From Mesonia aestuariivivens (GTDB taxonomy: Bacteria > Bacteroidota > Bacteroidia > Flavobacteriales > Flavobacteriaceae), in the NCBI RefSeq assembly GCF_019311235.1, contig NZ_JAHWDF010000002.1:186001-250000 (forward strand): DNA of 64,000 nucleotides. The letters are read 5' to 3'. The notes under the pieces were generated by a model. It had not been told where the DNA came from, made no database searches, and saw only the letters and a list, made by a program, of their open reading frames with translations. This document shows, in pieces, positions 37,820 to 41,414 of this stretch (within the stretch, counting starts at the first letter, position 1; every line of letters begins with the position of its first letter). The translations under genes were made by a program, and so were the position numbers.

Positions 37820-38743
37820 TTACAAAATTTTAATTCCATCTCCGTTAATTTTTGAAACGTGTATATCGTAATCAACTTCAAATTTTTGATACACTTCAGC
37901 CATCGCAGAAGCTATTTTTTGAGCAGTTTCTTTGTCTTTGCTAAGTGCAAAAATAGAAGGTCCAGAACCGGATATGCCACTGCCTAAGGCTCCGTGAGCT
38001 AAGGCTGTTTTTTTTACTTCATCAAAACCGGGTATAAGTACGCTACGTAAAGGTTCTATAATTTCATCGTGTAAACACCTGGCTAACAAATTATAATCAC
38101 TCGTATATAAAGCACTAATTAAACCGCCTAAATTTCCCCATTGGGTAATCGCACTTTTTAATGAAACTGAATGTTTTAATACCGAGCGTGCGTCTGCAGT
38201 TTTCACTTCTAGCTGCGGATGAATTACTGTAGCCATTAATTGATCTGGAACTGGAAGTTTAATTACATCTAAAGGCTCATAACTTCTTACTAAGGTGAAG
38301 CCACCCAACAAAGCAGGAGCAACATTGTCGGCGTGCAAAGCACCACTTGCTAAAAGTTCGCCTTGCATTGCAAAAGGAATCAAATCTTTTGTTGAAAAAG
38401 GTTCGCCGAGTAATTGATTAATACCAAAAACAGCTCCTGCGGCACTAGCGGCACTACTGCCAATACCGCTGCCGGGTTTTATGTGTTTATAGATTTCAAT
38501 TTCAAATCCTGCTTTTAGTTCTTTTAGGTTATTCAATAGGGCTAAACCTGCAACACCAGCAACATTTTTTTCTGTTGCTAAAGGTAAATTATGACCTCCA
38601 ATTTTAGTAATTTGAATACCAGGTGTAGATGATTTTCGAATTATCATTTCGTCGCCAGGTTGCGTTAAACAGAGTCCGAGTACATCAAAACCACATGATA
38701 CATTGGCAATGGTGGCAGGGCAAAATAGTTTAATTTCTTCCAT
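37820..38743 (-). CDS. thrB: Homoserine kinase
   Basis: This GHMP-superfamily kinase phosphorylates homoserine. The 307-residue protein has the ATP-binding loop PGSGIGSSAASAAGAVFG (about 92-109), the N-terminal PATIANVSCGFDVLG and the C-terminal GSGISGSGPSIFAL. It starts 3 nt after the thrA stop, so the two are translationally coupled. Confidence 0.96.
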   Translation of the reverse strand: MEEIKLFCPATIANVSCGFDVLGLCLTQPGDEMIIRKSSTPGIQITKIGGHNLPLATEKNVAGVAGLALLNNLKELKAGFEIEIYKHIKPGSGIGSSAASAAGAVFGINQLLGEPFSTKDLIPFAMQGELLASGALHADNVAPALLGGFTLVRSYEPLDVIKLPVPDQLMATVIHPQLEVKTADARSVLKHSVSLKSAITQWGNLGGLISALYTSDYNLLARCLHDEIIEPLRSVLIPGFDEVKKTALAHGALGSGISGSGPSIFALSKDKETAQKIASAMAEVYQKFEVDYDIHVSKINGDGIKIL

Positions 38744-38746
38744 AGT

Positions 38747-41194
38747 TTAATAATTACCTATTCTTATAATATCTGCGAAAATACCCGATGCAGTTACTTC
38801 TGCGCCAGCGCCAGCGCCTTTTATAATTAACGGTTGGTCTACATATCTTTCGGTATAAAATAAAACGATGTTGTCTTTTCCGTCTAAATTATAAAATGGG
38901 TGTGCTGCAGGTATTTCTTCTAATCCTACGCTTGCTTTTCCGTTATCAAATTGTGCTACATATTTGAGTCGACTATTGTTTTGTTGAGCGCTTTCAAATA
39001 ATTGATTAAAATGTGCTTTGTGAGTTTCTAAACTTTTAAAAAAATCTTCTGCGTTTTTAGTTTTCAAACATTCTTCGGGTAAAAAAGATTTATTTTGAAT
39101 ATGATCTAATTCGAGTTGATATCCACTTTCACGTGCGAGAATGAGTATTTTTCGCATGACATCAATTCCGCTTAAATCAATTTTAGGGTCTGGTTCTGTA
39201 TAGCCTTCGGCTTGCGCTTGTTTTACAACGTTTACAAATTCGCGATCTTCGTCAAAATTATTGAATACAAAATTTAAGCTTCCGGAAAGTACGGCTTGGA
39301 TTTTTGTGATTTTATCACCCGATGCAATTAGATTTTTAAGCGTATCAATAATGGGTAAACCTGCACCAACATTAGTTTCAAATAAAAACGGAGCGTTATA
39401 ATCTCTTGATAATTGTTTTAATTCGGCGTAATTTTCATAAGCAGAAGAACTCGCAATTTTATTACAAGTAACTACCGAAATACTGTTTTTTAAATACTGA
39501 GCATAAGTGTCAGCAATAAGCTTGTTAGCGGTGTTATCTACGAAAATACTGTTGCGTAAATTTATTTTTTTAATCTTTTCAAAAAATAATTGCTTGTCTG
39601 CTTTTTCACCCTGACTTAAACTTTCTTCCCATTTTTGAAGAGAGATTCCGCCTTCTTGAAAATACATCTTTCTTGAGTTAGAAAGTGCAATTATGCGCAC
39701 GTTTAGCTTTAAATTTTCTTTTAAAAATTTCTTTTGTTGCTGAATTTGATTTAAAAACTTAGCACCAACATTACCAACACCCATCACAAAAAGATTAAGT
39801 TGTTTTACGTTTTCTTCAAAAAAGCGTTCGTGTAAGGTATTTAATGCTTTTTTGACATCTTCTTTTTTAATGACTGCAGAAATATTTCGTTCTGAGGCTC
39901 CTTGTGCAATCACTCTAATATTCACATTGTTTTTTCCTAAAGCACTAAACATTTTTCCGCTTAAACCTTGATGGTTTTTCATATTATCTCCAACTAAAGC
40001 AATAATTGCTTGGTCATTTTCTACAAAAACCGGATGAATACGTTTTAAAGAAATCTCGTAAGCAAAAGATTGATCGAGCATTTCTTTGGCTTTAACAGCA
40101 TCTTTACTGTCAACAGCTATGCAAATGCTATGTTCAGATGAAGCTTGGGTAATGAGTACAACGCTAATGTTATTGACAGAAAGCACTTCAAAAAAGCGTT
40201 TAGAAATACCAGGAATACCAACCATTCCTGGTCCCTCAAGTGAAAGCAAGGAAATATTTTCAATATGACTAATGCCGCGTACAGGTCGGTTTTTACCATT
40301 GGTGTTTTTGGTGATTACGGTTCCTTTTTCTTTTGGTAAAAAAGTATTTTTAATATGAATAGGAATTTCTTTTTCTAAAACAGGCTGAATGGTAGGCGGG
40401 TAAATTACTTTAGCTCCAAAATGCGAAAGTTCCATAGCTTCTTGGTAAGATATTTCTTCAATAGCAATGGCTTGTTTTACCAATTTAGGGTTAGCGGTAA
40501 ACATTCCGCTTACGTCTGTCCAAATCTCTAATACTTCGGCATTTAAAGCGGCAGCAAGAATGGCCGCGGTGTAATCTGAACCACCACGCCCTAAAGTTGT
40601 AGAGTCTCCTGAAACCGAAGAGGCTACAAAACCAGGAAAAAGAGATACTTGATTTGCTTTTTCTTTTAACTGTTGGGTTAAATTTTGTTGAGTAAGCTCA
40701 AAGTCTACTAAAGCTTTTCCAAATTGTGTATTCGTTTTGATAAGTTGCCGACTGTCTTTGTAGCTACAAGATATTCCTTCCGCAGTAAAATAGCTATGAA
40801 TAATTTTAGAAGAAAGTAATTCCCCATATCCTAAAACCTTATCTAATAATTTGGGAGTCGTTTCGCCTATTAAGAAAGCGCCATCTAATAAGGTTTCTAA
40901 GGTGTTTAATTCTTGTTTTAAAAAACTCATGACAGTGCTTTGTTGTTGAATAGGGATGAGTTTTTTAACGACTTCTAAGTGTTTTTTTTCAATTAAATTG
41001 AAGGTTTTCTGGTAAGTTTCTTGTTGTTGACTGGCTAAAAATGCTGAGTCTAATAATAAATCAGTAACCCCGCCAAGTGCCGAAACAACGACACATAATT
41101 TATGATGAGCAGCTTCTTGCTGAACTATATTTTTAACGAGTTGAATATTTTCTGTGTTCGCAACAGAAGTTCCTCCAAATTTGAGAACTTTCAT
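38747..41194 (-). CDS. thrA: Bifunctional aspartate kinase / homoserine dehydrogenase I
   Basis: The 815-residue fusion catalyses the first and third steps from aspartate to homoserine. The kinase domain starts KFGGTSVANTENI and contains LGRGGSDYTAAILA. Two ACT-type regulatory segments (about 310-460: GPGMVGIPGISKRFF and LVGDNMKNHQGLSGKMF) are followed by the dehydrogenase with GVGNVGAKFLNQI (about 472) and SGSLNFVFNNF. ACT domains suggest feedback control by threonine. Transcription is probably controlled by the leader at 41227-41367. Confidence 0.97.
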   Translation of the reverse strand: MKVLKFGGTSVANTENIQLVKNIVQQEAAHHKLCVVVSALGGVTDLLLDSAFLASQQQETYQKTFNLIEKKHLEVVKKLIPIQQQSTVMSFLKQELNTLETLLDGAFLIGETTPKLLDKVLGYGELLSSKIIHSYFTAEGISCSYKDSRQLIKTNTQFGKALVDFELTQQNLTQQLKEKANQVSLFPGFVASSVSGDSTTLGRGGSDYTAAILAAALNAEVLEIWTDVSGMFTANPKLVKQAIAIEEISYQEAMELSHFGAKVIYPPTIQPVLEKEIPIHIKNTFLPKEKGTVITKNTNGKNRPVRGISHIENISLLSLEGPGMVGIPGISKRFFEVLSVNNISVVLITQASSEHSICIAVDSKDAVKAKEMLDQSFAYEISLKRIHPVFVENDQAIIALVGDNMKNHQGLSGKMFSALGKNNVNIRVIAQGASERNISAVIKKEDVKKALNTLHERFFEENVKQLNLFVMGVGNVGAKFLNQIQQQKKFLKENLKLNVRIIALSNSRKMYFQEGGISLQKWEESLSQGEKADKQLFFEKIKKINLRNSIFVDNTANKLIADTYAQYLKNSISVVTCNKIASSSAYENYAELKQLSRDYNAPFLFETNVGAGLPIIDTLKNLIASGDKITKIQAVLSGSLNFVFNNFDEDREFVNVVKQAQAEGYTEPDPKIDLSGIDVMRKILILARESGYQLELDHIQNKSFLPEECLKTKNAEDFFKSLETHKAHFNQLFESAQQNNSRLKYVAQFDNGKASVGLEEIPAAHPFYNLDGKDNIVLFYTERYVDQPLIIKGAGAGAEVTASGIFADIIRIGNY

Positions 41195-41226
41195 ATGTTT
41201 TATTTTAAATGAAATGAATAAAAGGA

Positions 41227-41248
41227 TGGTTTTTGTAGATACAAACCA
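41227..41248 (-). terminator. Leader terminator before thrA
   Basis: On the minus strand TGGTTTGT...ACAAAAACCA folds into a hairpin (arms at 41248-41241 and 41236-41227 with a small bulge), followed by TCCTTTTATTC. It lies between the leader peptide and thrA, about 33 nt before the thrA ATG, as in an attenuator. Confidence 0.6.
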
Positions 41249-41274
41249 ATATAACCTAAGACGATATGAATTAT

Positions 41275-41367
41275 TTATACCCCAAACGGGGTAATGGTAG
41301 AAATAGCAATAATGCCAGAAATAGAAGTTCTGGTAAGTATTAAAGATATGTTATTGCTATAGGTCAT
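41275..41367 (-). CDS. Candidate thr operon leader peptide
   Basis: An ATG at 41367, about 17 nt after the -7 element, opens a 30-codon frame ending in TAA at 41275. The peptide starts MTYSNNISLIL and ends SGIIAISTITPFGV. It contains 4 Thr, 7 Ile and 5 Ser, with Thr codons clustered near the end (ACC-ATT-ACC) just before a GC-rich hairpin. It resembles thrL of enterobacteria in principle, not in sequence. Confidence 0.7.
   Translation of the reverse strand: MTYSNNISLILTRTSISGIIAISTITPFGV
41278..41360 (-). promoter_or_regulatory. Hairpins within the thr leader
   Basis: Three stems overlap the leader peptide. ATAGCAATAA (41360-41351) pairs perfectly with TTATTGCTAT (41312-41303). Inside it, CCAGAA (41333-41328) pairs with TTCTGG (41320-41315). 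Then TACCCC-GTTT-GGGGTA (41293-41278) covers the last codons and the start of the stop codon region. Ribosome position on the Thr/Ile codons would decide which of these form. Confidence 0.6.
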
Positions 41368-41383
41368 CGAAGTGATTGTATCT

Positions 41384-41414
41384 CAAATGTATTATTTTTA
41401 AAAAGATTAAACAA
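41384..41414 (-). promoter_or_regulatory. thr operon promoter
   Basis: On the minus strand TTG (41414-41412), a 20-nt spacer and TACATTTG (41391-41384) match the Bacteroidota consensus exactly. The predicted start lies about 10 nt before the leader peptide. Confidence 0.75.

What the first reader, a model, noticed from the sequence alone, without database searches (positions are those of the whole stretch)
41227..41414. Thr/Ile/Ser-rich leader peptide and attenuator-like structure before thrA-thrB-thrC
Seen directly: an exact TTG-N20-TACATTTG promoter, then a 30-codon frame (41367-41275) with Thr codons clustered at its end, a 10-bp perfect long-range stem, a CCAGAA/TTCTGG stem, a TACCCC/GGGGTA stem over the last codons, and a separate hairpin with a T-rich tail about 33 nt before thrA. 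Known: enterobacterial thr operons use a leader peptide to sense Thr-tRNA and Ile-tRNA charging. Inference: this flavobacterial operon uses the same principle with an unrelated peptide. Serine codons are also frequent, which is unusual if only Thr and Ile are sensed.
Basis: partly seen in the sequence, partly recalled or inferred. Interest (0 to 1): 0.75.

Follow-up and report, generated by a model that had tools for sequence, protein, structure and literature searches.

The report
Threonine-operon leader peptide without a terminator
Just before its threonine-making genes this bacterium has a short threonine- and isoleucine-rich decoy gene with conserved RNA hairpins, which most likely lets it sense threonine shortage, but unlike its histidine and isoleucine switches it lacks the usual stop signal, so how it shuts transcription off is open.

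Summary
The finding is real and best read as a leader-peptide attenuator of thrA-thrB-thrC. In the window alone the Thr/Ile cluster is not beyond chance (p = 0.495); comparison carries the case. Of 126 Flavobacteriaceae thrA upstreams examined (higher-identity part of the family), 122 hold a short frame whose Thr(/Ile) codon run ends in a CCC-loop-GGG hairpin. In the 8 codons before it Thr is 5.1x, Ile 2.95x and Ser 0.63x expectation, so the serine idea fails.

What fails is the terminator. Between leader and thrA 0 of 122 have a U-tract terminator (2 by the loosest rule), against 12 of 12 for his in 12 genomes including this one; ilv has one within 450 nt in 10 of 12. No conserved antiterminator was found. 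Instead C exceeds G there in 122 of 122, as at Rho-loading sites; that step is inferred. Some related thr leaders do carry canonical terminators. A paper already reports attenuation clues for flavobacterial amino-acid operons. New variant of a known kind.

The parts
41384..41414 (-). Bacteroidota-type promoter: TTG - N20 - TACATTTG (box 41391-41384)
   Evidence: TAnnTTTG found 60-170 nt before hairpin II in 115 of 122 leaders, on the opposite strand of the same stretches in 50 of 122
41379..41379 (-). inferred transcription start (box taken as -12 to -5)
   Evidence: box position from a passage of PMC9723704; inference, not mapped here
41275..41367 (-). leader peptide frame MTYSNNISLILTRTSISGIIAISTITPFGV, stop TAA 41277-41275
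   Evidence: comparable frames in 122 of 126 Flavobacteriaceae upstreams
41290..41313 (-). Ile/Thr codon run (codons 19-26, IIAISTIT): supposed stalling site
   Evidence: Thr 5.1x, Ile 2.95x, Ser 0.63x over 61 leaders
41351..41360 (-). helix A, 5' arm ATAGCAATAA
   Evidence: own-versus-cross z -6.0 in group 1, n = 37
41303..41312 (-). helix A, 3' arm TTATTGCTAT, at the start of the codon run
   Evidence: differing versions in relatives listed
41315..41333 (-). hairpin I, CCAGAA/TTCTGG, inside helix A
   Evidence: z -3.8 in group 1; CCGAA/TTCGG in L004
41278..41293 (-). hairpin II, TACCCC GTTT GGGGTA over the last codons
   Evidence: pair types C-G, A-T, T-A at the 4th pair, arms inverted (ACGGG/CCCGT) in L090 and L098
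41263..41268 (-). CATATC, 12 nt after the last G of hairpin II; non-coding; ATAT invariant in 17 aligned leaders of the window's type
   Evidence: rows chosen for the window-type hairpin loop
41227..41248 (-). hairpin III before thrA, no conserved U-tract
   Evidence: z -4.1 (group 1) and -3.6 (group 3); against shuffles 29 of 61 have z < -1.5, the window itself z -0.5
41253..41258 (-). TAGGTT, can pair with GACCTA 41365-41360 (candidate long-range helix P1)
   Evidence: weak support in group 1 (p 0.039)
41195..41276 (-). region D between leader and thrA, G-poor (window C 0.146, G 0.073), candidate Rho-loading RNA
38747..41194 (-). thrA, aspartokinase/homoserine dehydrogenase I
   Evidence: NF006959, 1064 bits, cut-off 726
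37820..38743 (-). thrB, homoserine kinase
   Evidence: NF002288 and TIGR00191
36406..37701 (-). thrC, threonine synthase
   Evidence: TIGR00260

Best explanation
The region is a cis-acting leader-peptide attenuator of thrABC. A ribosome translating the short frame stalls on its final Thr/Ile codon run when charged tRNA-Thr (or tRNA-Ile) is short; it then sits on the 3' arm of helix A and at or in hairpin II, changing the fold and coverage of the nascent RNA so that RNA polymerase reads into thrA. With plentiful threonine the ribosome runs to the stop and leaves, helix A and hairpin II reform, and transcription mostly ends before or early in thrA. Shown: the frame, its Thr/Ile bias in relatives, the covarying helices and the absence of a canonical intrinsic terminator. 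Inferred: the stall, the regulation, and that the stop is made by something other than a U-tract terminator, most likely Rho acting on the C-over-G RNA between leader and thrA, with hairpin II plus CATATC as a polymerase pause.
For: 122 of 126 thrA upstreams with Thr-run leader plus hairpin II; codon enrichment; the stop codon lies at seven different offsets from hairpin II while the hairpin stays; covarying helices in three lineages; a model of the element hits at E <= 1.4e-6 in just the 6 of 16 genus genomes that have fused thrA, all at thrA (rows of four of the six were in the model); Thr leaders by eye before thrA in 14 of 39 loci of other families; his and ilv leaders with terminators in the same genome; 0 of 122 terminators between leader and thrA; C>G in 122 of 122 there against 14 of 32 long frames of the window; rho gene present.
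Against: No expression data. No mutually exclusive antiterminator was found, so the switch itself is not seen. A stalled ribosome would cover hairpin II but little of region D, so how it would block Rho is unclear. G-poverty may only serve to keep D unpaired. The window's own leader has only 2 Thr codons in the final run. A hairpin-II leader of another family (L106) does have a terminator by the same rule. Of 80 named loci 22 fail the leader rule, several Winogradskyella among them.
Confidence: 0.75

Rival explanations
1. Classical attenuator: hairpin III is itself an intrinsic terminator that flavobacterial RNA polymerase uses without a long U-tract, and P1 (5' leader pairing with the stretch before hairpin III) is the antiterminator.
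For: Hairpin III covaries in two lineages and ends about 35-43 nt before thrA in many loci; in the window it has 5 T in 8 after it; the loosest terminator rule accepts L045 and L167; long-range pairing has weak support (p 0.039 group 1, p 0.016-0.021 group 2; z -3.4 group 2).
Against: No U-tract after hairpin III in most loci; his in the same genomes has a strong U-tract terminator in 12 of 12, ilv in 10 of 12 within 450 nt; in group 2 hairpin III is not among the covarying pairs; most of the AGATACAA/TTGTATCT pairing would lie upstream of the inferred start.
Confidence: 0.25
2. Translational control: leader translation changes access to the thrA start, with no premature termination.
For: No canonical terminator; Shine-Dalgarno sites are absent in F. 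psychrophilum (passage of PMC9723704), so local structure may matter.
Against: No covarying pairing with the thrA start; own D1-start pairing is weaker than cross pairing (p 0.999).
Confidence: 0.12
3. Constitutive structured 5' region or chance short frame with no sensing role.
For: In the window alone the Thr cluster is not beyond chance.
Against: Thr/Ile codon runs and hairpin II kept in 122 of 126 loci while the rest of the peptide diverges, and Thr leaders with canonical terminators in relatives.
Confidence: 0.05

Closest known systems
Enterobacterial thr leader (thrL; Rfam Thr_leader, accession RF00506, both recalled)
   Same: Short Thr/Ile-rich frame directly upstream of fused thrA-thrB-thrC; presumed sensing of Thr- and Ile-tRNA charging.
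   Different: No Rfam match to it even at E 10; no U-tract terminator; conserved hairpin over the last codons or stop.
Flavobacterial his and ilv leaders (L115, L127; a hisG element is mentioned in PMC9723704)
   Same: Same genome, same principle: His-run and Ile-run leader frames (read by eye).
   Different: They are followed by strong U-tract terminators; thr is not.
Thr leaders with canonical terminator in Bacteroidota (L089, L095, L101; L261, L262)
   Same: Thr-rich leader of thrA.
   Different: Leader end or stop region (such as GGAGGAAG) complementary to the terminator's 5' arm, U-tract present, no C>G excess in the 30-36 nt before the terminator.
Rho-dependent leader-frame regulators (E. 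coli tnaC, mgtL recalled; toiL-topAI, PMC12121999 passages)
   Same: Translation of a short frame decides on non-intrinsic termination.
   Different: toiL senses ribosome-targeting antibiotics, tnaC and mgtL other signals (recalled); an amino-acid biosynthetic operon of this type did not come up in my searches.

Membership tests
Rfam Thr_leader and all other Rfam 15 families | covariance-model match at gathering score | tested here: not met
   0 matches in the window; at E up to 10 only one hit, E 7, on the other strand
Ribosome-mediated transcription attenuator | short frame with regulatory codons of the operon's product, conserved | tested here: met
   translation itself not shown
Ribosome-mediated transcription attenuator | promoter upstream so that leader and operon share a transcript | tested here: met
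   TAnnTTTG box in 115 of 122; start not mapped
Ribosome-mediated transcription attenuator | intrinsic terminator between leader and first gene | tested here: not met
   0 of 122 (2 of 122 by the loosest rule); his 12 of 12; ilv 3, 7, 10 of 12 within 120, 280, 450 nt; thr 0, 1, 3 of 122 within the same lengths
Ribosome-mediated transcription attenuator | mutually exclusive antiterminator | tested here: inconclusive
   no such pairing among the covarying ones of 360 window pairs; weak long-range P1
Ribosome-mediated transcription attenuator | read-through rises on starvation for the amino acid | not testable with these tools
   needs RNA measurements
Rho-dependent leader-frame attenuator | C-over-G, untranslated RNA after the leader | tested here: met
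   C>G in 122 of 122, C 0.191, G 0.080; 32 long window frames C 0.113, G 0.114; composition is a mark, not proof
Rho-dependent leader-frame attenuator | Rho present | tested here: met
   TIGR00767, 644 bits, over cut-off
Rho-dependent leader-frame attenuator | termination depends on Rho | not testable with these tools
   needs Rho inhibitor or in vitro assay

The most novel reading that the evidence does not exclude
Across much of the Flavobacteriaceae, threonine biosynthesis is controlled by a leader-peptide attenuator that has no intrinsic terminator and no antiterminator: a hairpin over the end of the leader frame plus a conserved CATATC pause sets polymerase and ribosome in step, and Rho, loading on a G-poor RNA after the leader, makes the stop, while his and ilv in the same cell use ordinary terminators.
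Probability: 0.35. Interest if true: 0.75.

Novelty: new variant of a known kind. Interest (0 to 1): 0.55.

Why it matters
Leader-peptide attenuation of amino-acid operons is textbook in Proteobacteria, where the stop is an intrinsic terminator. Here the sensing half is kept with striking conservation while the stopping half is missing, in a genome whose his and ilv leaders have it. It makes a clear question testable: what terminates transcription in a terminatorless attenuator, and does Rho serve amino-acid sensing in Bacteroidota. It also gives a recognisable signature (Thr run, hairpin over the frame's end, CATATC) that terminator-based surveys would miss.

Tried and rejected
Serine sensing: rejected, Ser 0.63x in the codon run. 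Hairpin III as a conserved U-tract terminator: rejected. Hairpin II pairing onward with region D: no support (hp3-D1 p 0.94, hp3-D2 p 0.10). Leader end pairing with the hairpin III 5' arm (classical 2:3): not among the covarying pairs. Sequestering of the thrA start: no support. AGATACAA/TTGTATCT of the first fold: mostly upstream of the inferred start, and absent from a fold begun at that start. Model R1, built on 17 leaders of the window's type, finds only 16 of 199 family genomes at E <= 0.1, as the other lineages differ; of those 16 places 13 lie directly before a thrA place listed, 1 lies on another contig than thrA (G096), 2 could not be placed. The 52-row alignment A1 put the hairpin arms out of register, so pairs were counted by script instead.

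Limits: the 120 family upstreams come from the places printed, which lists only the best-scoring ones (about 60% identity and up) of 320 genomes with a hit. Hairpin II was found by a rule that demands CCC, GGG and 4 pairs, so pairs 1-4 being paired is by construction; only the pair types and the two inverted cases are independent. The own-versus-cross test ignores phylogeny apart from row and column centring; its positive tail reaches z +3.5. Exclusions set by hand: L047 (its run holds almost no Thr, though it would pass the score rule), L056, L058, L197; L005 and L007 dropped as near-copies. In one search one of the 58 hits (L243) looks false by eye. The ilv control looked at 450 nt, a longer stretch than for thr; one search repeats all three at equal lengths. 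The 32 control frames are mechanical frames of 150 aa or more, not curated genes.

Full report
Observation. On the - strand the window reads: TTG-N20-TACATTTG (41414-41384), a 30-codon frame 41367-41275 (MTYSNNISLILTRTSISGIIAISTITPFGV), a 10-bp stem ATAGCAATAA/TTATTGCTAT inside the frame, CCAGAA/TTCTGG within it, TACCCC-GTTT-GGGGTA over the last codons, a hairpin at 41248-41227 with a T-rich tail, then thrA at 41194. The genes are thrA (bifunctional aspartate kinase/homoserine dehydrogenase I), thrB and thrC by NCBIfam. No Rfam family matches at gathering score, and nothing on this strand at E 10. The folded leader beats all 200 shuffles (z -4.75), though that stretch included 9 nt before the start site I infer; a fold begun at the inferred start keeps helix A, hairpin I, hairpin II and hairpin III. 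The Thr cluster of this single sequence is not beyond chance (p 0.495; by my count of the printed rows 42 of the 66 Flavobacteriaceae upstreams tested reach p <= 0.05, one of them on another frame).

Relatives. Fused thrA occurs in 6 of 16 genus genomes, and in 320 of 397 family genomes and 113 of 396 class genomes at E <= 1e-150. I took 5 genus and 120 family upstreams plus the window, 126 in all. The family ones come from the best-scoring places that one search prints, so lower-identity loci are not represented. In 122 of 126 there is a frame with a Thr(/Ile) run going into a CCC-loop-GGG hairpin (hairpin II), mostly 60-130 nt before thrA; the four set aside are L047 (degenerate), L056, L058 and L197. 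In an overlapping set of 80 named loci a score rule finds 58, one of them doubtful, and 42 of the 63 not seen before. Of the 22 without, I looked at 21: 2 carry a Thr leader with a canonical terminator instead (L261, L262), and several Winogradskyella have thrA close behind another frame. Among 39 loci of other families in the class, 14 have a Thr leader by eye (L074, L075, L076, L080, L083, L087, L089, L090, L095, L096, L098, L101, L105, L106). The nearest named relatives of the window are three Mesonia (82-89% ThrA identity) and a Salegentibacter (89%).

Codons. Over 61 leaders and the 8 codons before hairpin II, Thr is 182 against 35.5 expected from base composition (5.1x), Ile 117 against 39.6 (2.95x), Ser 33 against 52.1 (0.63x). 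Thr leads in all three lineages; Ile is strong in the window's lineage (0.31 of codons) and weaker in the others (0.11, 0.16). Serine is therefore not part of the conserved signal.

Structures. Hairpin II sits right after the Thr run, while the stop codon lies at seven different offsets from its 3' arm over 61 loci, so the RNA rather than the peptide end seems to be kept. The fourth pair is C-G in 59, A-T in 12 and T-A in 1 of 72; in L090 and L098 of another family the arms are inverted (ACGGG/CCCGT) (that the first four pairs are paired follows from the search rule). In 17 aligned leaders chosen for the window-type loop, one of them from another family, ATAT of a CATATC-like element about 12 nt past hairpin II is invariant although non-coding; in the wider set it is looser. 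To find other helices without a model I compared, for each pair of 22-nt windows, the pairing energy of partners from the same genome with that of partners from different genomes (112 non-redundant loci, 120 window pairs in each of three lineages). Window lineage (n = 37): helix A z -6.0, hairpin III z -4.1, hairpin I z -3.8. Third lineage (n = 26): helix A z -4.9, hairpin III z -3.6. Second lineage (n = 49): a local helix next to the Thr run z -3.9 and a long-range helix from early leader to just after the stop z -3.4. The largest positive z anywhere was +3.5. No pairing that would make a classical antiterminator, and none with the thrA start, stood out.

No terminator. A rule for a stem plus at least 6 T in 8 finds a terminator within 450 nt upstream of hisG in 12 of 12 and of ilvD in 10 of 12 genomes, the window's genome included in both; its leaders there read, by eye, MRKINLHHHHIHFHAQAR and MNRNLTIISIIILVIIIPIMN. 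Between hairpin II and thrA the rule finds none in 122 thr leaders. At equal lengths of 120, 280 and 450 nt the counts are his 12, 12, 12 of 12, ilv 3, 7, 10 of 12, thr 0, 1, 3 of 122; with 5 T and 5-pair stems, 2 of 122 thr leaders (L045, L167) gain one between hairpin II and thrA. So his is the clean contrast, ilv a weaker one, though in the window's own genome the ilv terminator lies 95 nt before the gene. Hairpin III has no U-tract excess; the window's 5 T in 8 is not shared by the three same-genus relatives tested. Thr leaders elsewhere in Bacteroidota (L089, L095, L101) and in two Flavobacteriaceae (L261, L262) do have canonical terminators, with a leader end or stop region complementary to the terminator's 5' arm; one hairpin-II leader outside the family (L106) also has a weak one. 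So two architectures exist for one operon.

What may stop transcription. Between hairpin II and thrA, C exceeds G in 122 of 122 loci (C 0.191, G 0.080); 80-nt upstreams of 32 long frames of the window have C 0.113 and G 0.114, with C>G in 14; his and ilv upstreams are nearly balanced. The five leaders with canonical terminators show no such excess in the 30-36 nt before the terminator; hairpin-II leaders of other families range from marked (L083, L090) to none (L087, L106). A C-over-G, untranslated stretch is a known mark of Rho loading (recalled), and the genome has rho. I therefore favour Rho, at moderate odds; the composition could also just keep this RNA single-stranded. Hairpin II followed by CATATC at 11-13 nt resembles the spacing of hairpin-stabilised pauses of E. 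coli his and trp leaders (recalled), which would hold the polymerase for the ribosome.

Known and new. PMC9723704 (passages; the section on 5' cis-regulatory RNAs in full) reports for Flavobacterium psychrophilum strong clues for leader-peptide attenuation upstream of amino-acid operons and names pheA and hisG elements; the words threonine and thrA do not occur in its main text, and its table could not be read. PMC2965389 (passages) searched by terminators, a method that would miss this type. PMC4833913 (passages) treats leader frames in general. So leader-peptide attenuation in this family is not new; the Thr leader, its end hairpin and the missing terminator were not found in print.

Verdict. 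A real, widely conserved Thr/Ile leader-peptide element of thrABC (confidence in the sensing role about 0.85), with an unresolved, probably non-intrinsic stopping step (Rho about 0.35).

Noticed in passing
L115 (G000:C9, upstream of hisG): His leader MRKINLHHHHIHFHAQAR (read by eye) followed by a strong U-tract terminator; same pattern in the 11 other Flavobacteriaceae looked at.
   Followed up: partly
L127 (G000:C23, upstream of ilvD): Ile-rich leader MNRNLTIISIIILVIIIPIMN (read by eye) followed by a canonical terminator.
   Followed up: partly
L089, L095, L101, L261, L262: Thr leaders of thrA with canonical terminators and complementary leader ends: a second architecture for the same operon.
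   Followed up: partly
window 41350-41345 and 41268-41263 (-): CATATC occurs twice, early in the leader frame and after its stop; whether the repeat means anything is unknown.
   Followed up: no
L252, L260, L282, L286, L296: In these Winogradskyella loci thrA follows closely behind another open frame and no Thr leader is seen, suggesting relocation into another operon (frame printed for three, seen by eye for L286 and L296).
   Followed up: no
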